A stretch of DNA of 26,531 bases. Origin: Clostridia bacterium (GTDB taxonomy: Bacteria > Bacillota_A > Clostridia > Christensenellales > Aristaeellaceae). Below are positions 2,928-25,539 of the stretch, in pieces. The stretch's first letter is position 1, and each line of letters opens with the position of its first letter. The translations under genes and the position numbers were made by a program. The notes below the pieces were generated by a model. That model was not told where the DNA came from, did no database searches, and saw only the letters and a list, made by a program, of their open reading frames with translations. Location of the stretch: NCBI GenBank assembly GCA_017938645.1, contig JAGBBE010000087.1, positions 1 through 26,531 of the forward strand. The letters run 5' to 3'.

Positions 2928-3563
2928 TTATCTCATGTTATCGAGGAAGTAGGCCATGAGCTTGACAGCGTTATCGGTGTTGCCGCCGTTGACGAGCAGG
3001 CCCATCACTTTGCCCGCAGGATCGACGTGCAGGTCGAGCAGGCCTTCGAGGCTGTCCGTGGGAATGCCCACCAGCATTTTTTCACCGGTTTCCTGGTCGA
3101 TCTTGTAGTAGTCATCCACGTTGATGCCGTCGATGTTGAGCGTTCCATCCTCCACATAGGGCAGGAGATTGGCCATCACGCCGTTGCCGATCATGGAGGA
3201 ATAGCTCTCCTCCTTGAGCATGTACAGATCGCCCTGACCTGCCACGCTCCACACCATCAGCTGCATCTCGCCGTACTGGTCATCCATGCCCACCAGCGCA
3301 AACGTGACTTCCTCCATATCCGGGAAGAGCTCCGGCGTGACTTCTTCAAGGAACGCCGCAGTGCGGGCATCCGTTTCACTGGAGGTACTGCCTTCGTAAT
3401 ACCATTCGATTTTGAGATGTTCAGGACTCTGGTAGCGGGTGGTGGTATAAATGAGGTTCCAGCCCAGAATGGCGGCCAGCACCAGCACCATGTACTGCCA
3501 CCAGAAATAATGGAAATGATTTCGGATTCTCTGCTTTGTAATTTTCAGTTCCGGAGCAGCCAT
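2928..3563 (-). CDS. Membrane-anchored protein of unknown function, 211 aa
   Basis: The product has a short basic N-terminus (KITKQRIRNHFHYF), one hydrophobic helix at about residues 21-39, then a roughly 170-residue acidic, soluble region. The topology would place the C-terminal domain outside the cell with the helix as an uncleaved anchor. I do not recognise a named family. The acidic external part (EEVTPELFPDMEEV, LPYVEDGTLNIDG) shows no catalytic motif that I can identify. The ATG at 3563 is preceded by AGGAGG six bases upstream, so the start is well supported. A promoter-like sequence lies at 3615-3643 and a terminator follows immediately, so it appears to be a single-gene unit. It may be related in role to the next membrane gene, but the terminator between them argues for separate transcription. 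Confidence 0.85.
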   Translation of the reverse strand: MAAPELKITKQRIRNHFHYFWWQYMVLVLAAILGWNLIYTTTRYQSPEHLKIEWYYEGSTSSETDARTAAFLEEVTPELFPDMEEVTFALVGMDDQYGEMQLMVWSVAGQGDLYMLKEESYSSMIGNGVMANLLPYVEDGTLNIDGINVDDYYKIDQETGEKMLVGIPTDSLEGLLDLHVDPAGKVMGLLVNGGNTDNAVKLMAYFLDNMR

Positions 3564-3681: not shown

Positions 3682-3714
3682 AAAACGAGTCTGCTTATGA
3701 GGCAGACTCGTTTT
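3682..3714 (-). terminator. Intrinsic terminator overlapping the 3' end of the 513-aa membrane protein gene
   Basis: The 13-bp stem 3682-3694/3702-3714 (AAAACGAGTCTGC and its complement) has a 7-base loop that contains the TAA stop codon (3695-3697). On the minus strand the second arm ends in TTTTT. The right-hand arm thus doubles as the last codons of the gene (ENESAS), an economical overlap of coding and termination signals. Confidence 0.85.
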
Positions 3715-5236
3715 CAGCGTTATAGAACAGTTCGAAATACCACTTCATATAGCGAACCCGGCCATAGATGCCCTGGAACGGCAGGCGGTCGCGCTTGAAC
3801 ACATAGGGCTGCGACCCCAGCGGCTGCACAGCCACGACGTCGCTGTCGGTTACGCGGATGTATTCCTGACGCTCCGCCATATCCGCGCGGAACTGCGCCG
3901 CCTCGCCGGTTACGAGGGATTTGAGGGCGCTGACGGAAGAAGTATTCATGATGGTGAATTCGAATCCGCCAAACGCAGTCAGCGCGATGACAAGCGCAAG
4001 GAAAGCCGCGGAGAAGCGTTTGCCAAGGCCTTCCGTCGCCTTGAGCAGATGGGCAGCCTCCTCCTTTTGGCTGGATTCCAGCTTACGGATCAGCCAGCCC
4101 TCAGCATAGACCGTGCTTCCGGCTGCAAAGAGGAGGAAGTACAGATACACGGCGTTGAAATAGCGGCCGGAGGCGTACTCGGTCTGGGTATAGATTGCGG
4201 GAGCAATCGTTGCAGAGAACAGACCGTAGAGCATGATGAACACCCAGAAAGGATGTGCGAAGCGGAAAGAGCTTTCCTTCAGCGGCTTCCACAGTGCCGC
4301 AGTGATCAGCAGAAGCATGGCCAAAAGATGCGGAGAAAGCAGGCGGCCGGTGACGTCAAAGGAATCCAGCACAGCGGTGATGACTGTGGAAAGCGGCGAA
4401 AGCATTTCGCCCGTGCGATCCATACGTACCAGGTTGCCGGGTGCAGATACGCTGATGATCATGCCCAGCACGCAGCCGATACAGGCAGCGAGGCAGAAGG
4501 TACGGCTGCGGCTGCGGGTAAAAAAAGCATATACTGTAAGCATAAAGAAAAATACAAGAGCGCCCAGCATAGGACCGAAGCTTCCGCCCCCAAGCATCAT
4601 CCCCAGCAAAAACAGCACTGCGTACCGCCACACGGCAGAGAAGCCGCTGTATCCGTCAATACAGCGGATGAGGATGCCAAGGGCCAGGAAAAGCCAGCAG
4701 ACCGGAGCCGTATACACCGTGCCGGTATGCCACATGATGCCATCGCTGACGGACGGCATAAACTGGATAACCAGAATCATCAGGGCGGTGTACACAATCC
4801 AGAAAACCTGACGGCTCGCCTGAAGAAGTCTGCAGACAATGCCCTTGACAAGATACGCCGCCGTAAGGCAGAGTTCAAGCATGATGCCCCAGTTGGCAAT
4901 GAAATACAGGTTCTGGTTAAAGATCATCGGCGACATGGAAATATGCGCCGTACCCGAAAAGTTGCCCTGCCAGGTGGTGTACATCTCGCGGTTTTTCTCC
5001 AAAACTGCCTTGAACACCTCACCCAGCGAACCCGTCTGCACCCATGCGGTGGCTACAGGCAGCACGAAGCCGAAGTCATCATCGGCAGGATAGTTGTACA
5101 GCGCAATCACAAACAGCGGCACCATCATGCCAATCATCAGCACCATGCAGATGCGTGAGAGCTGTTTTTGAGAAATGGATTTGGAAAAGAGGCGGGAAAC
5201 AAGTCCGCAGAATTGTTCGTAAGCCTTGACGATCAT
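3695..5236 (-). CDS. Polytopic membrane protein, DUF6056-like, possible GT-C-type glycosyltransferase
   Basis: 513 residues with about ten to twelve hydrophobic helices. Just after the first helix, at residues 48-56, is NYPADDDFG, an acidic cluster on the predicted outer face. GT-C membrane glycosyltransferases have a comparable Asp/Glu motif after TM1. The general layout (TM1, acidic loop, many helices, short soluble tail of about 70 residues at the C-terminus) resembles the family I recall as DUF6056, of unknown function. That name is from memory and needs a profile search. If it is a GT-C enzyme, it would move sugars from a lipid carrier to a cell-surface acceptor. The ATG at 5236 is preceded by GGAAGG. 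It has its own extended -10 promoter and terminator, so it is probably monocistronic. Confidence 0.85.
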   Translation of the reverse strand: MIVKAYEQFCGLVSRLFSKSISQKQLSRICMVLMIGMMVPLFVIALYNYPADDDFGFVLPVATAWVQTGSLGEVFKAVLEKNREMYTTWQGNFSGTAHISMSPMIFNQNLYFIANWGIMLELCLTAAYLVKGIVCRLLQASRQVFWIVYTALMILVIQFMPSVSDGIMWHTGTVYTAPVCWLFLALGILIRCIDGYSGFSAVWRYAVLFLLGMMLGGGSFGPMLGALVFFFMLTVYAFFTRSRSRTFCLAACIGCVLGMIISVSAPGNLVRMDRTGEMLSPLSTVITAVLDSFDVTGRLLSPHLLAMLLLITAALWKPLKESSFRFAHPFWVFIMLYGLFSATIAPAIYTQTEYASGRYFNAVYLYFLLFAAGSTVYAEGWLIRKLESSQKEEAAHLLKATEGLGKRFSAAFLALVIALTAFGGFEFTIMNTSSVSALKSLVTGEAAQFRADMAERQEYIRVTDSDVVAVQPLGSQPYVFKRDRLPFQGIYGRVRYMKWYFELFYNAENESAS

Positions 5237-5267
5237 AATGCGCCTTCCTTTGAAAAGTCTTCGTCTG

Positions 5268-5296
5268 ATTATATCACAGCTGTTTCAGCCATACAA
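5268..5296 (-). promoter_or_regulatory. Predicted sigma-A promoter for the DUF6056-like gene
   Basis: On the minus strand, TTGTAT (5291-5296), a 17-base spacer and a consensus TATAAT (5268-5273), preceded by TGA to give TGATATAAT, an extended -10. It is about 30 bases upstream of the ATG at 5236. Confidence 0.7.
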
Positions 5297-5386
5297 TCCC
5301 GGCTATGTTTTCTGCTTTTCACTTTTATGTCCCATTTTCATTTTTGTGTCTGATTTTGCTTTTTACTTTTTTAATCTGAAAGAATT

Positions 5387-5395
5387 TGTTATGAT
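5387..5395 (+). promoter_or_regulatory. Predicted extended -10 promoter for the URO-D/GPH/PIG-L operon
   Basis: TGTTATGAT (5387-5395) matches TGnTATAAT at all but one position. It lies within a T-rich stretch (about 5315-5375) and 43 bases before the ATG at 5439. There is no good -35 at 17 bases (only a T-run), consistent with dependence on the extended -10. Confidence 0.55.
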
Positions 5396-5438
5396 AGAAA
5401 TAGTTGACAACCTTATCATCACCAAAGGAGCGATATCG

Positions 5439-6665
5439 ATGTCCATTTCCGCAAAAGACCGTTCCATTCTGCGCGAGCTTGCCGCACGGCAGATGGAACT
5501 GGCTCATTCTTCCCGCAACCAGCAGCTTTACCAGGACTGGATTCAGTACGGCAAAAGCAAAAGCAGCTTCCGTCCCATGATCCGCATTGAAATTGAGACC
5601 TTTGAGCACCAGCTTCTGCCCGGTCTGATGCGCTGCGAGGGCGAAGAGGCGCGTGAAATCGAAAAGCGCATGCTGCGCCCCATCGTCAACTTCACCCGTT
5701 TTGAGGATGACACCCTTGTGCCCGCCTATTATCCCGTCTATCTGCACAAACGCTTTGTGCCCTTCGGGTTGGAGGTGCGCAGGCAGGAGAGCGGCAGCCT
5801 CGGGCATCACTTTATCCCGTATATTCATGATCTGGAGGAAGATGAGCATCTGCTGGGCGACTCCGTCTATTCCGTGGATGAAGAAGGCACCCGCCGGGAA
5901 GAGGAGCAGGCGCAAGAGATTTTCGACGGTATTCTGCCTGTGAAGCGCGTGACGGAATGCATGGGCTGCTGTCCCACGCAGGACATCGTGCACATCATGA
6001 ACATGGACGACATGTACATCGCCATGGTGGATGACGAAGATCGCTTCCACGCCATGATGCGCCGCCTGACGGATGATTATCTCGCCTTCTTCCGTCTGCA
6101 GGAGGAAAAAGGTCTTTTGAGCTCGCACGCGGATATGCAGCGTCTGGCGCAGGGCAGCTACTGCTTTACCGACGAGCTGACGGATGGCATCTCGCCTGCA
6201 AAGCTGTCCGATCTGTGGCTGTTCATGGATTCGCAGGAGACTGCGGGCATCTCGCCTGATATGTACGCCGAGCTTGTGTTCCCGTACTATGAGGAAATGA
6301 TGTCGCATTTCGGTCTGGTCAGCTACGGCTGCTGCGAGGCCTCGCATCCCATCTGGGATAACTGCCTGTCCAGAGTGCCCAATCTGCGCAAGGTGTCCAT
6401 TTCCCCATGGTGCGATGAAGCCTTTATGGGTCAGCGCCTGCAAGGCACGGGCGTCACCTATCTGCGCAAGCCCCCTGCAACGCTTCTGGGCATGGATACG
6501 CCCACGCTGGAGGAGGATGCTGTGCTGGACTGCTTCCGCAAAACCGCGCAGGCTGCAAAGGGCTGCAAGATCGAGATTGCCCAGCGCGACGTGTACATGG
6601 TGGGCGGATCAGCCGAAAAGGTGCACAGGTTTGTGGAACTGGCCCGCAAGGGACTGGAAGGATGA
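5439..6665 (+). CDS. Uroporphyrinogen decarboxylase (URO-D) superfamily protein
   Basis: 408 residues from the ATG at 5439, chosen because AAAGGAG lies eight bases upstream. The frame stays open back to 5226, but those bases hold the promoter. The second half resembles URO-D-fold proteins that are common in gut Clostridia: MDDMYIAMVDDEDRFHAMM, the YGCCEASHPIWD segment with paired cysteines, then the VPNLRKVSISPWCD segment. This superfamily includes HemE and the corrinoid methyltransferases MtaA and CmuA. It is unlikely to be HemE, because no haem gene is nearby and the N-terminal HemE signature is absent. The Cys/His/Glu cluster could bind zinc, as in the methyltransferase branch. The substrate is unknown. 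It is the first gene of a tight operon with a sugar-type symporter (15-base gap) and a PIG-L deacetylase. A catabolic role on an imported small molecule is inference. Confidence 0.85.
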   Translation: MSISAKDRSILRELAARQMELAHSSRNQQLYQDWIQYGKSKSSFRPMIRIEIETFEHQLLPGLMRCEGEEAREIEKRMLRPIVNFTRFEDDTLVPAYYPVYLHKRFVPFGLEVRRQESGSLGHHFIPYIHDLEEDEHLLGDSVYSVDEEGTRREEEQAQEIFDGILPVKRVTECMGCCPTQDIVHIMNMDDMYIAMVDDEDRFHAMMRRLTDDYLAFFRLQEEKGLLSSHADMQRLAQGSYCFTDELTDGISPAKLSDLWLFMDSQETAGISPDMYAELVFPYYEEMMSHFGLVSYGCCEASHPIWDNCLSRVPNLRKVSISPWCDEAFMGQRLQGTGVTYLRKPPATLLGMDTPTLEEDAVLDCFRKTAQAAKGCKIEIAQRDVYMVGGSAEKVHRFVELARKGLEG

Positions 6666-6680
6666 CGGAGGGATTCCGCT

Positions 6681-8162
6681 ATGGATGAGAAGAAACGCAA
6701 CCGGATCAATCTGTGGATGTTCCCGCTGGGCACAGTGGGACGCGATATGCTCTATTCGCTGTTCAACAGCTTTCTGTTTACCTATGTGCTCTTCACCCGC
6801 ACGCTTTCGGCGGCGCAGCTGAGCGCCATCACGGTAATCATGGTGGCTGCGCGCGTTTTTGACGCGCTCAACGATCCCATCATGGGCAATATCATCGAGC
6901 GTACCCGCACGCGCTTTGGCAAGTTCAAGCCATGGCTGGTCATCGGCATTCTTGCCACCATCGTGGTGGAATACCTCGCCTTCAACAGTGACCTGCAGGG
7001 CTGGAGCTTCGTGGCCTTTTTCGGCGTGATCTATTTCCTCTACAGCATCGCCTACACCATGCACGACATCTCCTACTGGGGCATGGTGGCGTCGCTGAGT
7101 TCCAACGCCGATACGCGCAATCAGCTCACCAGCCGTGCAACGCTGTTTGCAGGCATTGGCGGCACGCTGGCCAGCCTGGTGATTCCCATGTTCACCACCG
7201 GCGGGCTGGCGCTTGGCGGAAACGCCATGACCGCCTATGGCCGCATCGCGCTGGTCTTCTGCGTGATTGCGCCGCTGTTCATGTGCTTTACCGTATTCGG
7301 CGTGCGGGAGCGCGAACAAAAAGCATACGAGCAGGCGCCGCCCATCAGCTTCAAAAAGATTCTTTCTACCATCACCGGCAACGACCAGCTGATGTGGATC
7401 GCCATCATCTTCCTCATCCAGCAGATCGGCAACAACCTCGCCGTGCACGGTCTGGGCGCGACGTACATCTATCTGGAGTTCGGCTATGCAGGCGGATTGT
7501 ACTCGCTGTTCAACACCATCGGCGTACTCGCCACCGCCTTCCTGATGCTGTTCTATCCCGTCATCAGCCGCAAAATCCAGCGCAAGCGCCTGATGAAGAT
7601 CATGATGATCATCAGCACCGCCGGCTATGGGGCCATGCTTCTGTCAGGATTGCTGATGCCCTCCACCATGGTCAAGTTCTGGCTGATCACCCTGAGCTAT
7701 ATGGCGGCCAACTTCGGTATCTACAGCTTCTATCTGGTCATGATGATTTCCATCATCAACACCGTGGAATACAACGAATACAAGCACGGTGTGCGCGACG
7801 AGGCCATCATCGCGTCGCTGCGCCCGTTCCTGACCAAGCTGGCCTCCGCGCTGGTAGCTGCGCTGACCTCGCTTGCCTACATCCTCTTTGGCGTAACCGG
7901 CACCACCAACCAGATTTCCTCCTTTGAAAACGCTGCTGCCAGCGGCGCGATCACCGAGGCGGAAAAACTCGCAGGCATCAGCAGCGTCATTGACGCCGTT
8001 GCGCCTTCGCAGAGCATCGGACTGTTTCTTTGCATCACGGTATTGCCGTTTGTGATGATGCTGATCGCCTACGTGCTTTATCAGAAGCACTACAAGCTGG
8101 ATGAGCCTGAGTACGACCGCATCTGCATGGAGCTTGCCAAACGGAAGGAGCTGGGCGCATGA
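6681..8162 (+). CDS. GPH-family cation:sugar symporter (MFS, MelB-like)
   Basis: 493 residues, normal length for the glycoside-pentoside-hexuronide:cation symporter family, with about 12 membrane helices. The N-terminal signature is clear: GRDMLYSLFNSFLF, then FDALNDPIMG and RTRFGKFKPW in the cytoplasmic loop between helices 2 and 3. The segment TMHDISYWGM around helix 4 is also typical. Members import glycosides, pentosides or hexuronides with H+ or Na+. The ATG at 6681 has GGAGGG upstream. It lies 15 bases after the URO-D-like gene, and its stop overlaps the start of the PIG-L gene (ATGA), so all three are likely translated together. The cargo cannot be read from sequence; the neighbours suggest a substituted sugar or glycoside. 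Confidence 0.93.
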   Translation: MDEKKRNRINLWMFPLGTVGRDMLYSLFNSFLFTYVLFTRTLSAAQLSAITVIMVAARVFDALNDPIMGNIIERTRTRFGKFKPWLVIGILATIVVEYLAFNSDLQGWSFVAFFGVIYFLYSIAYTMHDISYWGMVASLSSNADTRNQLTSRATLFAGIGGTLASLVIPMFTTGGLALGGNAMTAYGRIALVFCVIAPLFMCFTVFGVREREQKAYEQAPPISFKKILSTITGNDQLMWIAIIFLIQQIGNNLAVHGLGATYIYLEFGYAGGLYSLFNTIGVLATAFLMLFYPVISRKIQRKRLMKIMMIISTAGYGAMLLSGLLMPSTMVKFWLITLSYMAANFGIYSFYLVMMISIINTVEYNEYKHGVRDEAIIASLRPFLTKLASALVAALTSLAYILFGVTGTTNQISSFENAAASGAITEAEKLAGISSVIDAVAPSQSIGLFLCITVLPFVMMLIAYVLYQKHYKLDEPEYDRICMELAKRKELGA

Positions 8163-8923
8163 GTCTGACCCGGCTTGCCCTGCGCTTTGCCGCGCCGGTT
8201 CCGAAGGTGGAAGGCTTTGAAAGGTACCTGTTTGTCGGTCCGCATCCGGACGACATCGAAATCGGCGCAGGAGCCACCGCAGCGAAACTGGCGGCGGCAG
8301 GCAAAAAGGTCTGCTTCCTCATCTGCACAGACGGCCGTTACGGCGACGGACACACCGACAAAAAGGGCGACGCTCTGGTCCATGTCCGTCAGCAGGAATG
8401 CATTCGTTCGGCAGAAATGCTGGGCGTAAGCGACGTTCGCTTCCTTGGCCTGTCGGACGGCGGCTTCTATGCCATGGACGATCTCCTCCGCGGTATCGCA
8501 CAGACGATTGCGGATTTTCAGCCGGACATTCTCTTTGCGCCTGATCCCTGTGTGAAAAGCGAGGCGCATCCGGATCATCTGAGCGTTGGTGAAGCTGTGC
8601 GCCGCCTCGCCTGCTTCGCTCCGTATGAGGGCATCATGGCGCAGTACGGAGCCAGCTCCGCGCCTGTCAAAGCGGCGGCTTTCTACATGACTGCGCGCCC
8701 CAACCGATACGTCAGAACCGTTGGATATGTTCCCCGGCAGCTGGACGCCGTGTTCAAGTGCCATCTCAGCCAGTTCCCGGAAGGCAGCGCCGATGCAGGC
8801 CAGATCGCGCTGTATCTGAAGCTGCGCTCCATCGATTTCGGCCTTCGCAGCCTCAAAGGACAGGCTGAAGGCTTCCGCGTGCTGGGTGCGCTGCACATGC
8901 ATTGCATGCCGGAAAGCGAGTGA
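8159..8923 (+). CDS. PIG-L/LmbE-family N-deacetylase
   Basis: 254 residues, typical for the family of zinc-dependent hydrolases that remove N-acetyl groups from GlcNAc-containing small molecules (PIG-L, MshB, BshB). The zinc motif is intact: HPDD at residues 29-32 within VGPHPDDIEIGAG, and the second motif HPDH with H137, D139 and H140. No signal peptide is seen, so it acts in the cytoplasm. The ATG overlaps the symporter stop by four bases (ATGA), implying translational coupling. The context suggests that an imported N-acetylated sugar or glycoside is deacetylated inside the cell. It is not clearly BshB, since no bacillithiol genes are next to it. Confidence 0.92.
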   Translation: MSLTRLALRFAAPVPKVEGFERYLFVGPHPDDIEIGAGATAAKLAAAGKKVCFLICTDGRYGDGHTDKKGDALVHVRQQECIRSAEMLGVSDVRFLGLSDGGFYAMDDLLRGIAQTIADFQPDILFAPDPCVKSEAHPDHLSVGEAVRRLACFAPYEGIMAQYGASSAPVKAAAFYMTARPNRYVRTVGYVPRQLDAVFKCHLSQFPEGSADAGQIALYLKLRSIDFGLRSLKGQAEGFRVLGALHMHCMPESE

Positions 8924-8928
8924 CACAA

Positions 8929-8961
8929 AGCCGCCCCGATCCATTTGGAATCGGGGCGGCT
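8929..8961 (+). terminator. Intrinsic terminator of the URO-D/GPH/PIG-L operon
   Basis: A 12-bp GC-rich stem (8929-8940 with 8950-8961, AGCCGCCCCGAT and complement) with a nine-base loop, followed by GTTTTTTC. It starts five bases after the PIG-L stop. The convergent MATE gene ends at 8968, so it may also slow transcription from that side. Confidence 0.93.
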
Positions 8962-8967
8962 GTTTTT

Positions 8968-10359
8968 TCAGTTTTCAAACCCGGCCTTTTTGATCGACCT
9001 CTTGAGCCATCCGCCCTTGAGGTAGTACACGATGAACAATACCGACGTAACCGTCCAGGTCAGCGGGTAGCAAAACAGAACCATGTTGAGGGTGCGGTTG
9101 AAGGGCACCACGCCCAGCAGCCAGATGATACGCAGCGCACACACGCCGGACAGCGTCAGAATGGAGGGCAGAAGCGCATCGCCGGTTCCGCGAAGCGCGC
9201 CGGAGAGCACCTCAATGCAGACATAGAGGATGAACACCGGAGCCAGCTGCCAGAGCATCTGCATGCCAATTTCGATAACCTGCGCATCGTCGGTAAACAG
9301 GTGGTACAGCGGCTTTCCGGCCAACAGCAGGAAGCAGCTGAGAAGCAGCGTGCCGGCCGCCGTCATGGCCAGACAAACCTTCACGCTCTTTTTGACGCGG
9401 TCGTACTTCTGCGCGCCAAAATTCTGACCCACAAAAGTCGTGATGGACACGCCGAACGCATTCTGAAGCATCCAGTTGAAGGCGTCGAGCTTGCCGTAGG
9501 CGGTATAGGCGGCCATGACATTGGTGCCGAAGCCGTTGATGGAGGCCTGCACGATGGTGTTGGACACATTGTAGGCCATGGACTGCAGACCGGCGGGCAG
9601 GCCGATGGTGATGATGCGCTTGAGGTGGTTGGCATGGAAGCGGATCTTTTTGAGCTCCAGACGGTAGGAGGTGTGAGAGCGCATGAGGGTCACAATGATC
9701 AGCGCAGCGCTCACCGCCTGAGAAAGGATGGTCGCCAGCGCAGCGCCGGCCACATGCATCTCAAAGCCCACGACGAATACCACGTCCAGCACGATGTTGG
9801 TCACGCACGCAACAATCAGAAACAGGAGCGGACGGCGGGAATCACCCACAGCGCGCAGGAGGCCGGAGCCGATGTTGTAGATGAGGGACGGAATCATGCC
9901 CATGAAATAGATGCGCATGTAGCTGAGGGAATAGCCGATCAATTCCTGCGGCGTATCCAGCAGATTGAGCAGCATCGGCGACAGCCACAGTCCCAGCGCC
10001 ATGATGAGCAGGCCTCCGGCCACGGCCATGGCCATGGCTGTGTGCACGGTTTCGCTGACTTCCTTGTGCTTGCGTCCGCCGTAGTACTGCGACAGGATCA
10101 CCGTAGCGCCGGAGGACAGGCCCACAAAGAATCCCACGATCAGGTTGATGATGCTGCCCGTGGTTCCGCCGACAGCCGCCAGCGCTTCCTTGCCCACGAA
10201 TTTGCCCACGATGATCGCGTCAATGGTGTTGTACATCTGCTGGAAGAACGTGCCCAGCAGAATCGGGAAGAAGAACGAAAGCAGGTTTTTCCAGATCACG
10301 CCTTCGGTGATGCTGTTTTCCTGATAGGGAGCAGCCTTGCGTTTCATCGGCCATGCCAT
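8968..10359 (-). CDS. MATE-family multidrug/cation antiporter
   Basis: 463 residues with about 12 helices, the usual size for MATE exporters, which expel drugs or metabolites using Na+ or H+ gradients. Characteristic parts are LLSFFFPILLGTFFQQMYNT near the N-terminus, DAIIVGKFVGKEALAAVG, and the second-half counterpart with NGFGTNVMAAYTAYGKLDAF. The ATG at 10359 is preceded by AAGGAG eight bases upstream. It is last in the purC operon, 24 bases after the GNAT gene. The substrate is unknown. Its place after a nucleotide-sugar enzyme might suggest export of a modified sugar compound, but MATE genes are common and this may be chance. Confidence 0.94.
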   Translation of the reverse strand: MAWPMKRKAAPYQENSITEGVIWKNLLSFFFPILLGTFFQQMYNTIDAIIVGKFVGKEALAAVGGTTGSIINLIVGFFVGLSSGATVILSQYYGGRKHKEVSETVHTAMAMAVAGGLLIMALGLWLSPMLLNLLDTPQELIGYSLSYMRIYFMGMIPSLIYNIGSGLLRAVGDSRRPLLFLIVACVTNIVLDVVFVVGFEMHVAGAALATILSQAVSAALIIVTLMRSHTSYRLELKKIRFHANHLKRIITIGLPAGLQSMAYNVSNTIVQASINGFGTNVMAAYTAYGKLDAFNWMLQNAFGVSITTFVGQNFGAQKYDRVKKSVKVCLAMTAAGTLLLSCFLLLAGKPLYHLFTDDAQVIEIGMQMLWQLAPVFILYVCIEVLSGALRGTGDALLPSILTLSGVCALRIIWLLGVVPFNRTLNMVLFCYPLTWTVTSVLFIVYYLKGGWLKRSIKKAGFEN

Positions 10360-17745: not shown

Positions 17746-17784
17746 CGAAAACGCAACCTTTCCATAAAAATCAGATGTATCACC

Positions 17785-17813
17785 GTTATATCACATTCAT
17801 GTACAAAAAGCAA
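17785..17813 (-). promoter_or_regulatory. Predicted promoter for the secreted propeller-like protein
   Basis: On the minus strand, TTGCTT (17808-17813), a 17-base spacer and TATAAC (17785-17790), preceded by TGA (extended -10). It is about 40 bases upstream of the ATG at 17745, in the divergent gap shared with the GH2 gene. I see no equally good promoter for GH2 on the plus strand. Confidence 0.55.
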
Positions 17814-17891
17814 AGGCTTCTGAAAGGGAAAGCGCATCCGAAGCGCGAATCCTTCCTGCAGCTGAAAAACCACCGAAAAGGAGTGGCTGAT

Positions 17892-19592
17892 ATGATTCCC
17901 CGCCCTGAATATCCCCGTCCGCAGTTTGTGAGGACGGGCTGGATGAACCTAAACGGTTCCTGGCAGTTTGAAATCGACCACGGTGCGTCCGGACGCGCGC
18001 GCGGTCTGGTCGAAAAAAATCCGCTTGCGCAGACCATTCTCGTGCCCTTCTGCCCGGAGAGCGAGCTTTCCGGCGTAGGATACAAGGACTTCATGGCCGC
18101 CGTCTGGTACCGCCGCACCTTTACCCTGAGCGAGGAGGCCAAGGGCAAGCGCGTGCTTCTGCACTTCGGAGCGGTGGACTACAAGTGCGAGGCATGGGTA
18201 AACGGCCAGTCCGTCGGCGTGCACGAGGGCGGCTACGCCTCCTTCTCCTTTGAGATCACCGACGCGCTCACCGATGGCGAAAACACCCTCGTCGTCTGTG
18301 CGGATGACGATCTGCGCCACGGCCGTCAGCCCTTTGGCAAGCAGTGCTACCGCTATCATTCCTTCGGCTGCAGCTACACCCGCACCACCGGCATCTGGCA
18401 GACGGTATGGCTGGAGTTTGTGCCTCAGACCTACATCGAATCCGTCCGTATGATTCCCGACGCCATGAACGGCACGCTGTACCTCGACGCGCTTGTCAAC
18501 GGCGATGCGAAGGATCTTTCGCTGCAGCTTGCCGCCTCCTTTGAAGGTACGCTGCAGTCCGACACATGCGTCAAGGTGGACGGAAATCATGCCAAAGCCA
18601 CGCTGAAGGTGAAGGACACTCATCTGTGGAACGCGGGCGAGCCGAATCTCTACGATCTCACGCTTACGCTGGGCGAGGATATGGTAACGAGCTACTTTGC
18701 CCTGCGCACGATTTCCTTCGAGGGCAAAAAGTGCCTGCTGAACGGAAAGCCCGTCTTCCAGCGTCTGGTGCTGGATCAGGGCTTCTATCCCGATGGCGTA
18801 TACACCGCGCCCAGCGACGAAGCCCTCCGTCATGACATCGAAATGTCCATAGCCATGGGCTTCAACGGCGCAAGGCTGCATCAGAAGGTCTTTGAACAGC
18901 GCTTCCTCTACTGGGCGGACAGGCTCGGCTATCTCTGCTGGGGCGAAATGCCCAGCTGGGGCATCGAACCCGCTCATCCGCACACAATGAGCATCTTCCT
19001 GCGCGAATGGCTGGAAGTGGTTCAGCGCGACTTCAACGCGCCCTGCATCGTGGGCTGGTGTCCCTACAACGAGGTCTGGGGAGAGAGCAACGACGGCCTG
19101 CGCGAGCTGACCCTGCAGATGACCTATCGCGCCACCAAGGCTGTCGATCAGACCCGTCCGGTCATTGATGTCAGCGGCGGCTTCCACGTGGAAACCGATA
19201 TCTACGACACCCACGACTACGCCCAGAGCGTCGAACTTTTCTCCGAGCGCTACGCGCCCGGACAGGAGCTGTACGAACCCTTCCCGGGCAAGGAGAAGTA
19301 CGACGGAAAGCTTCCCATGTTTGTCAGCGAGTACGGCGGCATCCGCTGGACGGACGACGAATCCGGCTGGGGCTACGGCGAAGGGCCCAAGACCGAGGAG
19401 GAATTCCTCGCCCGCTACAAGGGGCTGACCGAGGCGCTGCTTGCCAATCCCGAGCACATGGGCTTCTGCTACACCCAGCTGACCGACGTCGAGCAGGAGC
19501 AAAACGGCCTGTACACCTATCAGCGCAAGGCCAAATTCCCGCCGGAAATCATCAAAGCCATCAATTCGCAGAAGGCCGCGATTGAAGAATAA
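17892..19592 (+). CDS. Glycoside hydrolase family 2 enzyme (beta-galactosidase/beta-glucuronidase type)
   Basis: 566 residues from the ATG at 17892, chosen because AAAAGGAG lies eight bases upstream; the frame is open back to 17775 without a better site. The N-terminal sugar-binding domain has WYRRTF, the AWVNGQSVGVHEGGY stretch and the NTLVVCADDD stretch. An immunoglobulin-like domain follows, then the barrel. The two catalytic glutamates are visible: acid/base E394 in CPYNEVWG and nucleophile E480 in FVSEYGG. The protein is short for GH2 and ends soon after the barrel, without the large C-terminal domains of LacZ. There is no signal peptide, so it works on imported oligosaccharides. Exact specificity (galactosidase, glucuronidase, mannosidase or other) cannot be decided. 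It appears monocistronic with a shared terminator downstream. Confidence 0.92.
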   Translation: MIPRPEYPRPQFVRTGWMNLNGSWQFEIDHGASGRARGLVEKNPLAQTILVPFCPESELSGVGYKDFMAAVWYRRTFTLSEEAKGKRVLLHFGAVDYKCEAWVNGQSVGVHEGGYASFSFEITDALTDGENTLVVCADDDLRHGRQPFGKQCYRYHSFGCSYTRTTGIWQTVWLEFVPQTYIESVRMIPDAMNGTLYLDALVNGDAKDLSLQLAASFEGTLQSDTCVKVDGNHAKATLKVKDTHLWNAGEPNLYDLTLTLGEDMVTSYFALRTISFEGKKCLLNGKPVFQRLVLDQGFYPDGVYTAPSDEALRHDIEMSIAMGFNGARLHQKVFEQRFLYWADRLGYLCWGEMPSWGIEPAHPHTMSIFLREWLEVVQRDFNAPCIVGWCPYNEVWGESNDGLRELTLQMTYRATKAVDQTRPVIDVSGGFHVETDIYDTHDYAQSVELFSERYAPGQELYEPFPGKEKYDGKLPMFVSEYGGIRWTDDESGWGYGEGPKTEEEFLARYKGLTEALLANPEHMGFCYTQLTDVEQEQNGLYTYQRKAKFPPEIIKAINSQKAAIEE

Positions 19593-23385: not shown

Positions 23386-25539
23386 TTATGCGGTAATCAG
23401 CGTGTGGATGCGTCCATCCTCCGCAAAGGCCACCTGCATGCCTGCGGGCGCTTCGACGCTGACGGAGGCATTGTCCATTTCGACCGACAGTCTGCCAAGG
23501 GGCGTCATCAGACTGCCGGAAACCGTTTTGCCATCCGGCAGGGTGCAGGGCTGGATGATCACGTCCTGATAGCCCGCTGTGCCTTCACGCTGGTGAATCC
23601 CCAGCACGCCGGTAAACAGCTGCCTTGCGCCTGCGGCAAACATCGGGTGGTTGTGCGATTCCGCGCCGTTCCAGTTTTCCCAGATCGTGGTCGCGCCGCG
23701 ATCCTTCATATACAAATAGGAGCCCAGCTCACGGCTTTCCAGCAGCCGAATGGCCGTGTCGGCATGGCCGTGGGTGAAAAGCACCTCCAGAAGCACGTCG
23801 GTTCCGACAAAGCCGGTGTCGAAATGGCCGAGTCCGTCGTAAAAAGCGGCAACCTGTGCAGCCTTTTCCGCACCTTCGAGGCCGCACCACACGGCATAGG
23901 CGTCCGCCCCCTGATCTCCTGCGTCGTAATGTCCGGTTCCAGGGTTGAAGAAGCGCCTGCGGATGGCTTCCTGCGCATCCGCTTTGAGACTGTGCAAGTG
24001 CGCAAGCGTCTCCGTTCTGCCAAGAAGCTGCGCGATGTCCTCCATCGCCGTCAGCATCCGGACAAAGCAGCAGGTGTTGACGTAACTGGTTGAAATACGG
24101 ATCTTTTCCAGCGTACACCAGTCGCCAAGGCACCATCCGCCCTCTTCCTCACGCACGATCAGCCCGTCCTCCATGCGCGTGGTCAGGTAGCCGATCCACT
24201 TCATCATCGGTTCAAAGCAGGTTTTCAGCATGTCCCGGTCGCCGTACTGACGGTAATAGGCATACGGCACCGTGATGATCGCCGCGCCCCACACGCCCGG
24301 GCCGCCGCCTCCGCCCATGAGCGGCGCCGTGTGCTGCACATGGCCGGTACGCCGGTCCTGACAGTCAAGGATGTCCTGAATCCATTTGCGGTAGAATTCG
24401 CGGCAGTCCAGCGTCATCATTGCGGCGGGCGCGCACACCTGACCGTCGCCCGTATATCCGAGCCGTTCGCGGTGCGGACAGTCAGAGGGATGGCTGCCGT
24501 GCATGTTGCCAAGCTGCGTACGAACAAAGCCGTCGTAGAGAAACTGCAGTCCCTCCAGATCGGATCGGAAGCTTGACGTCACAGGCGTGTCGCTGTGAAT
24601 GACGCAGACCTCCACCTGATCAAACGGCCCTTCCACCTCAAAATACCGGAAGGCATGCCACACAAACCGCGGCGCAAACACGCGCGCTTGACCGTCGGTG
24701 ACGAACACGTCTTCCATGATCTGCGGTTTTCCGGACGAACTCACATGCGCGCAACCCGTGGAGGCAAAATCCAGCGTCAAATCCTGCCGGATTTCCTCCG
24801 CAAAGCGCAGAACGTTCTTCGTGCCTCTGGGCGCGCTGGTGGTAAGCCGCACGATGCCGGTCAGGTTTTCGCCCGCATCAAACAGTTTCTTGCCATCCTT
24901 TTCGCCCAGCAGCAGCGGCTTAACAGTGCGGATGATCCTGTCAGGCGTGCCGATGGCCGGACTGAGCAGCGTTTTGGGCGCGGGCAGCACCAAAACCGGC
25001 TTTTCATCCGCAAGATCAGCGGTATAGTCGATCACTTCGCCATGGAAGAGGTTATGATCGCGGATTTCGCTGTCGCGCTGGGTTTCGCTGCCATCGCTTT
25101 GGATGCACACCGTGCCATCAGCCGTTTCTGCATCCAGTCGGTAGATGGTTTTGAGGATGCTTCCGAAAAAGGTCGGGCCCTCGCAGCAGCGTTCCGTCTG
25201 GCGGTAGAAGCCGTTGCCCAGACGGATTTCCAGCACGTTTTCGCCGTCGTGAAGAAGCGGCGCGACGTCGAATTCATAGCAATAGATGCGGTTTTGCGTC
25301 TCGTCCTTCAGCGGATAGAGAAACGCTGTGAGATCACGTATCTCATAGTCGCTGACCACCGGCAGGAAGTACTGATCCGTAACCGGCAGGCCATTGATCC
25401 GCGCTTCAAAATAGCCCAGACCCGTCAGCGTGAGCGCAGCCTCCTTCACGCCCCGAAGCACAAACCGGCGCGTGATCACAGGCGACGAATACAATTCATC
25501 TGCGCCGATCCATACGGCGTTTTCCAGCGTATATTTCAT
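23386..25539 (-). CDS. GH78 alpha-L-rhamnosidase-like glycoside hydrolase
   Basis: 717 residues. An N-terminal beta-rich region (about 1-300) has GYFEARINGLPV, LEIRLGNGFYRQ and HGEVIDYTAD. It leads to an (alpha/alpha)6 barrel. The GH78 hallmark is seen at DCPHRERLGYTGD with E358 as the probable catalytic acid, and the second glutamate E621 is in TTIWENWNG. A C-terminal beta domain follows (PLGRLSVEM). These enzymes release L-rhamnose from plant glycosides and pectins. The protein is shorter than many GH78 enzymes (about 900-1,000), consistent with fewer accessory domains. There is no signal peptide, so it should act in the cytoplasm. It has the strongest promoter in the window and is divergent from an SGNH esterase gene, a partnership that suits acetylated rhamnose-rich glycans. 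Confidence 0.9.
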   Translation of the reverse strand: MKYTLENAVWIGADELYSSPVITRRFVLRGVKEAALTLTGLGYFEARINGLPVTDQYFLPVVSDYEIRDLTAFLYPLKDETQNRIYCYEFDVAPLLHDGENVLEIRLGNGFYRQTERCCEGPTFFGSILKTIYRLDAETADGTVCIQSDGSETQRDSEIRDHNLFHGEVIDYTADLADEKPVLVLPAPKTLLSPAIGTPDRIIRTVKPLLLGEKDGKKLFDAGENLTGIVRLTTSAPRGTKNVLRFAEEIRQDLTLDFASTGCAHVSSSGKPQIMEDVFVTDGQARVFAPRFVWHAFRYFEVEGPFDQVEVCVIHSDTPVTSSFRSDLEGLQFLYDGFVRTQLGNMHGSHPSDCPHRERLGYTGDGQVCAPAAMMTLDCREFYRKWIQDILDCQDRRTGHVQHTAPLMGGGGGPGVWGAAIITVPYAYYRQYGDRDMLKTCFEPMMKWIGYLTTRMEDGLIVREEEGGWCLGDWCTLEKIRISTSYVNTCCFVRMLTAMEDIAQLLGRTETLAHLHSLKADAQEAIRRRFFNPGTGHYDAGDQGADAYAVWCGLEGAEKAAQVAAFYDGLGHFDTGFVGTDVLLEVLFTHGHADTAIRLLESRELGSYLYMKDRGATTIWENWNGAESHNHPMFAAGARQLFTGVLGIHQREGTAGYQDVIIQPCTLPDGKTVSGSLMTPLGRLSVEMDNASVSVEAPAGMQVAFAEDGRIHTLITA

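What the first reader, a model, noticed from the sequence alone, without database searches (positions are those of the whole stretch)
5439..8923. URO-D-like protein, GPH symporter and PIG-L deacetylase form a compact uncharacterised operon
A 15-base gap and an ATGA overlap tie the three genes together between one promoter and one terminator. Import by a glycoside symporter, removal of an N-acetyl group and processing by a URO-D-fold enzyme with Cys/His/Glu residues would make a short pathway that I do not recognise. The URO-D branch includes methyltransferases, so a methylated, N-acetylated sugar or glycoside is a testable guess. This is the best candidate for a new system here.
Basis: partly seen in the sequence, partly recalled or inferred. 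Interest (0 to 1): 0.7.

Follow-up and report, generated by a model that had tools for sequence, protein, structure and literature searches.

The report
Candidate anaerobic methyl-sugar demethylase operon
A gut-type bacterium carries an unnamed enzyme, whose relatives sit with vitamin-B12 methyl-transfer genes and sugar genes, in one operon with a sugar importer and a deacetylase, which hints at a way to strip methyl groups from sugars without oxygen; the sugar substrate is not yet shown.

Summary
The three genes are real, tightly packed and end at a strong terminator. As a trio they were not found again: none of 83 loci of the URO-D-like family has the symporter or PIG-L in the flanks held, and none of 23 close symporter places in 22 genomes has the URO-D-like gene. 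Two modules have been joined. Symporter plus PIG-L is a conserved pair (10 of 13 genomes; 4-base overlap kept in 9 of 11). The URO-D-like gene belongs to an unnamed clade: of 18 loci at 60% identity or more, 13 lie near a corrinoid protein (12 with a MtaA-like protein, 11 with the activator RACo), one sits with a pterin methyltransferase, MTHFR and EtfAB, two close a rhamnose operon. RACo is in 45 of 50 genomes with the family, 45 of 200 without. The model has the URO-D fold. Best reading: a corrinoid methyltransferase I that takes O-methyl groups off a sugar or glycoside, here tied to import and deacetylation. Anaerobic sugar demethylation is called unsolved in print (PMC12316285, passages).

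The parts
5439..6665 (+). Gene 1: URO-D-fold protein, proposed corrinoid-dependent O-demethylase methyltransferase I (408 aa)
   Evidence: activity inferred
6681..8162 (+). Gene 2: GPH (MelB-like) sugar:cation symporter (493 aa)
   Evidence: TIGR00792 above cut-off, PF13347, melibiose permease 8t60 E 3.2e-36
8159..8923 (+). Gene 3: PIG-L/LmbE-type N-deacetylase (254 aa)
   Evidence: PF02585; diacetylchitobiose deacetylase 8bgn E 3e-29 over residues 18-253; HPDD at 29 and HPDH at 137
8929..8968 (+). Rho-independent terminator: hairpin 8929-8961 and T run 8963-8968
   Evidence: z -6.95
5237..5438 (.). Divergent intergenic region expected to hold the promoter; no site above chance

Best explanation
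Gene 1 is the substrate-binding methyltransferase (MT1) of a corrinoid-dependent O-demethylase. It moves a methyl group from an O-methylated sugar or glycoside to the Co(I) corrinoid of a small B12-binding protein encoded elsewhere in the genome. A second methyltransferase passes the methyl on (a MtaA-like or a pterin-binding one in relatives), probably towards tetrahydrofolate, and RACo reactivates the corrinoid. In this organism gene 1 stands in front of an independent two-gene unit: a MelB-like symporter that imports an acetylated sugar and a PIG-L enzyme that removes the N-acetyl group. Import, de-N-acetylation and O-demethylation would together make a decorated (amino)sugar usable. Shown here: gene anatomy, families, the predicted fold, the corrinoid and sugar settings in relatives, co-occurrence with RACo. 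Inferred: MT1 activity (about 0.85), a sugar as methyl donor (about 0.6), that the three genes act on one substrate (about 0.5).
For: Model pLDDT 95.1; Foldseek's first hit is the methylcobalamin methyltransferase 4ay8, E 3.8e-7; profile match to the neighbouring MtaA-like proteins, probability 92, E 6.7e-7, with Cys298 on their motif Cys227. 13 of 18 close homologues near a corrinoid protein, 12 with a MtaA-like protein, 11 with RACo, and 0 of 15 GPH/PIG-L control loci. L069: gene 1 with MTHFR, EtfB, EtfA and a methyltetrahydrofolate:corrinoid methyltransferase above its cut-off. RACo in 45 of 50 genomes with the family against 45 of 200 without. Sugar settings: GH35 and ABC permeases (L001), GH2 (L006), RhaB-RhaA-RhaD (L007, L008), aldolase and sugar kinases (L069). 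Here: sugar symporter and PIG-L.
Against: No corrinoid gene in the 26.5 kb window. The trio was not found elsewhere. Ten homologues at 43-57% identity have no corrinoid gene nearby, and only 3 of 40 loci at 24-36% have a corrinoid protein and RACo. No RACo was found in G008 (rhamnose locus) or G471; in G007 RACo is on another contig with no corrinoid protein or MT2 matched in 14 kb. Five of 50 genomes lack RACo. The His of the MtaA zinc motif is Tyr296 here. Co-occurrence was not corrected for kinship. No activity data.
Confidence: 0.55

Rival explanations
1. Gene 1 is a corrinoid methyltransferase I, but for a donor that is not a sugar: a methoxylated aromatic (perhaps as a glycoside), methyl thiol, methylamine or methanol.
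For: UroD-superfamily MT1s known in print act on methoxylated aromatics and haloalkanes (PMC13222342, passages; PMC8630106, passages). Corrinoid contexts do not name the donor.
Against: Sugar-catabolic genes in several different settings around close homologues and beside gene 1 in the window; a Rha operon has no obvious link to aromatics.
Confidence: 0.25
2. The trio is an accident of gene order: gene 1 was inserted in front of the GPH/PIG-L pair and does not work with it.
For: No recurrence; the pair stands alone in 10 of 13 genomes and those 13 lack RACo; the spot beside the 2928-3563 gene varies within the genus.
Against: 15-base gap, overlap and one terminator make one transcript likely; gene 1 homologues elsewhere also stand directly beside sugar transporter or sugar enzyme genes.
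Confidence: 0.35
3. Gene 1 is a uroporphyrinogen decarboxylase (HemE).
Against: No hemE or URO-D match for the protein; 9-14% identity to the UROD structures listed at E 0.001 or better; family-specific invariant YGCC and Glu379; up to 4 family members per genome; corrinoid contexts.
Confidence: 0.02

Closest known systems
Three-component corrinoid O-demethylases (MtvB, OdmB, VdmB, MtoB) and CdmB
   Same: UroD-superfamily MT1 working with a corrinoid protein, an MT2 and an activator (PMC13222342, PMC8630106, passages); the same kinds of partner lie near 13 of 18 close homologues of gene 1
   Different: Those act on aromatics or haloalkanes; gene 1 relatives sit with sugar genes; no sequence comparison with those proteins was made here; in the window the partners are absent
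MtaA/CmuA methylcobalamin methyltransferases
   Different: HxC...C motif not kept: Tyr296-Gly-Cys298 and invariant Glu379 instead; no match to TIGR01463
Cytochrome P450 demethylation of 6-O-methyl-galactose
   Same: Removes an O-methyl group from a sugar (PMC10033563, passages)
   Different: Oxidative, gives formaldehyde; the system proposed here would need no oxygen
Diacetylchitobiose deacetylase (Dac)
   Same: PIG-L family, full-length similarity to gene 3 (8bgn, E 3e-29)
   Different: In T. kodakaraensis it acts with an exo-beta-D-glucosaminidase in chitin use (PMC4101496, passages); no such gene is next to gene 3
MelB / GPH symporters
   Same: TIGR00792 above cut-off; melibiose permease E 3.2e-36
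   Different: MelB equivalog cut-off not reached (205.8 against 456 bits), so the sugar is open

Membership tests
Corrinoid O-demethylase MT1 | URO-D fold | tested here: met
   AF2 pLDDT 95.1; Foldseek and VIA-align
Corrinoid O-demethylase MT1 | Cognate corrinoid protein, MT2 and activator in the genome | tested here: inconclusive
   Near 13, 12 and 11 of 18 close homologues; none in the window; the window's genome is not held
Corrinoid O-demethylase MT1 | Transfers methyl from an ether to Co(I) | not testable with these tools
   Needs an enzyme assay
Corrinoid O-demethylase MT1 | Zinc site (present in some members, absent in others: PMC13222342) | tested here: inconclusive
   Cys298, Cys299, Glu379 invariant; geometry not measured
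Uroporphyrinogen decarboxylase HemE | Match to the hemE equivalog TIGR01464 | tested here: not met
   0 NCBIfam families at E 0.001
MtaA/CmuA methyltransferases | HxC...C motif and TIGR01463 match | tested here: not met
   Tyr296 at the His position; 0 NCBIfam families
GPH symporters | TIGR00792 above cut-off | tested here: met
   255.2 against 231.35 bits
PIG-L/LmbE deacetylases | PF02585 above cut-off, with the HPDD and HxxH metal motifs (motif names recalled) | tested here: met
   106.3 against 28.2 bits; HPDD at 29, HPDH at 137
Diacetylchitobiose deacetylase | Deacetylates GlcNAc2 | not testable with these tools
   Sequence nearest to 8bgn/8bgo among solved structures
A recurring three-gene system | All three genes together in other genomes | tested here: not met
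   0 of 83 family loci and 0 of 23 symporter places, within the flanks held

The most novel reading that the evidence does not exclude
The gene 1 clade is the missing oxygen-free route for demethylating sugars: a corrinoid methyltransferase I family that removes O-methyl groups from mono- or oligosaccharides (methyl-rhamnose, methyl-galactose or methylated amino sugars, judged by context) in gut Clostridia and sends the methyl to tetrahydrofolate; here it is wired into one operon with sugar import and de-N-acetylation.
Probability: 0.45. Interest if true: 0.8.

Novelty: new variant of a known kind. Interest (0 to 1): 0.6.

Why it matters
Some plant and algal polysaccharides carry O-methyl sugars. 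For 6-O-methyl-galactose the known route is an oxidative P450 system (PMC10033563, passages), and a 2025 paper on porphyran use in the gut says that demethylation in anaerobes has not been elucidated and is 'a mechanism to be discovered' (PMC12316285, passages). A defined protein clade with its corrinoid partners makes that question directly testable and would link glycan breakdown in the gut to B12-dependent one-carbon metabolism.

Tried and rejected
HemE: rejected. Recurrence of the trio: not found at the depth searched. Contig-length matching of the protein lists (read by eye; best 120 hits each): the GPH and PIG-L lists share 4799, 8007, 21609, 64507, 99975, 133244 and 175264; the URO-D list shares none of these; it shares 2886 with the GPH list (P0096, P0167) and 1357 with the PIG-L list (P0115, P0244), which I take as chance for such short contigs, so a trio on a 2886-base contig is not excluded. 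Rfam RNA in the window, such as a cobalamin riboswitch: none at gathering threshold. PDB by sequence with gene 1 or its profile: no relevant match. Reading the GH35 of L001 as a glucosaminidase that would pair with the PIG-L: not upheld; a beta-galactosidase scores best (E 3.7e-34), the glucosaminidase 5gsm 7.2e-17, and the NCBIfam glucosaminidase cut-off is far off (81.7 against 1500 bits). Paper searches for a corrinoid sugar demethylase (listings only): none seen; two searches returned no paper. Other prokaryotic gene clusters with UroD-superfamily methyltransferases (PMC10418091, outline and passages) are assigned there to methyl-sulfur or methyl-selenium; no mention of sugars, RACo or PIG-L was found in that text. 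Metal geometry in the model could not be measured, as I had no coordinates.

Full report
Anatomy. Three genes on the + strand (5439-6665, 6681-8162, 8159-8923) are separated by 15 bases and a 4-base overlap and end at a strong hairpin with six T. A promoter cannot be told from chance. Upstream and divergent is a DUF6056 protein (3695-5236), downstream and convergent a MATE transporter. Gene 2 is a GPH symporter above the curated cut-off; gene 3 is a PIG-L protein whose nearest solved relatives are diacetylchitobiose deacetylases. Gene 1 matches no Pfam or NCBIfam family by itself.

Context of gene 1 in relatives. 18 loci carry a homologue at 60% identity or more: L001-L013, L067-L069, L194 and L195. 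Flanks reach about 8 kb but are shorter where contigs end. In 13 of 18 a corrinoid protein lies within 7 kb, in 12 of 18 also a MtaA-like URO-D protein, in 11 of 18 also RACo; eight have an AraC-type regulator on the opposite strand upstream. L069 has instead MTHFR, EtfB, EtfA and a methyltetrahydrofolate:corrinoid methyltransferase in one run, next to an aldolase and two sugar kinases. L007 and L008 have RhaB, RhaA and RhaD followed by gene 1, with a 4-base overlap in L008 and a LacI-type regulator and RhaM upstream in L007. The remaining two, L003 and L012, show nothing: L003 ends 209 bases after the gene and L012 is 3.2 kb long. In L003's genome, AraC, corrinoid protein, MT2 and RACo lie together on another contig (L211). 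In L001 a GH35 gene stands 12 bases upstream and two ABC permeases follow; in L006 a GH2 gene is upstream. Fifteen PIG-L loci of the same taxonomic family (198,239 bases, most with GPH) hold no corrinoid protein, MT2 or RACo match.

Co-occurrence. Among 250 genomes drawn from that family, RACo is found in 90 and gene 1 relatives at E 1e-20 in 50; 45 have both (odds ratio 31, Fisher p 6.5e-19). I take the draws to be the same 250, as the handles agree. Kinship was not corrected for and completeness is not told, so the p value overstates. In nine further genomes with gene 1 relatives, 7 have RACo; G008 and G471 do not. In G007 (rhamnose locus) RACo is on another contig, without a corrinoid protein or MT2 match in the 14 kb held.

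More distant relatives. Ten homologues at 43-57% identity (L070-L073, L196-L201) have no corrinoid gene nearby. Of 40 loci at 24-36%, three (L143, L158, L164) have a corrinoid protein and RACo. GH109-like proteins lie near members of the 35-37% branch in L075, L079 and L080, with a glucosamine-6-phosphate isomerase family protein in L075. So the corrinoid link is firmest in the window protein's own branch.

The GPH/PIG-L pair. PIG-L at 56-70% identity is found in 13 of 250 genomes; two more have it at 32-34%. In 10 of the 13 the symporter is next to it, and the two distant ones have a 22-25% symporter relative beside theirs. Among the 11 pairs seen in the symporter search the 4-base overlap is kept in 9. 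None of the 13 has RACo. In L106, L107 and L110 another gene follows the symporter; the two tested (L106, L110) match the carbohydrate esterase 2 N-terminal domain. A symporter paired with one or another deacetylase points to an acetylated sugar (inference).

The trio. None of 83 loci of the gene 1 family (L001-L013, L067-L086, L129-L168, L194-L203) has a GPH or PIG-L match in the flanks held, and none of 23 GPH places in 22 of 308 genomes has gene 1 within 1.5 kb. Neighbouring genes tie the window to the genus of G243 (PheT 92%, the 2928-3563 gene 68%). There 2 of 17 genomes have gene 1 relatives, while G243, G239 and G168 have the pair. Beside the 2928-3563 gene, G003 has the corrinoid block, G243 an unrelated gene, and the window DUF6056 and the trio: a variable spot, perhaps a trace of how gene 1 came here (inference).

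Mechanism and novelty. UroD-superfamily MT1 enzymes demethylate methoxylated aromatics or dehalogenate haloalkanes through corrinoid proteins, with or without zinc (PMC13222342 and PMC8630106, passages). Gene 1 fits that role by fold and by its relatives' partners. The sugar neighbours, of different kinds in different genomes, make an O-methyl sugar the likeliest donor, but nothing here shows it. PMC12316285 (passages) says that demethylation of methyl-galactose in anaerobes has not been elucidated. My searches listed no corrinoid sugar demethylase; the library lacks most subscription journals. I rate it a new variant of a known kind, of high interest if the substrate is confirmed, and not a recurring three-gene system.

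Noticed in passing
window 23386-25539 (-) and 17775-19592 (+): An alpha-L-rhamnosidase (PF17389) and a GH2 protein lie 9-17 kb from the trio; two close homologues of gene 1 close rhamnose operons, so methyl-rhamnose is worth a test.
   Followed up: no
L211:2055-7515 (G003): AraC, corrinoid protein, MT2 and RACo stand beside the homologue of the window's 2928-3563 gene, which flanks DUF6056 and the trio in the window.
   Followed up: partly
window 2928-3563 (-): An unnamed gene (Pfam not run on this frame) that is kept in 16 of 17 genomes of the G243 genus.
   Followed up: partly
L106:3022-4065 and L110:3004-4047: The slot after the symporter holds a CE2_N/GDSL carbohydrate esterase in place of PIG-L.
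   Followed up: partly
L075, L079, L080: GH109-like proteins near 35-37% homologues of gene 1, a hint at amino-sugar chemistry in that branch.
   Followed up: no
L144, L158, L164, L166, L167, L168: A second kind of URO-D-like protein (21-31% to L078:6228-7319) directly beside distant homologues of gene 1.
   Followed up: no
L011:8001-9226: The gene 1 homologue of G011 is matched in two overlapping frames: a frameshift or an assembly error.
   Followed up: no
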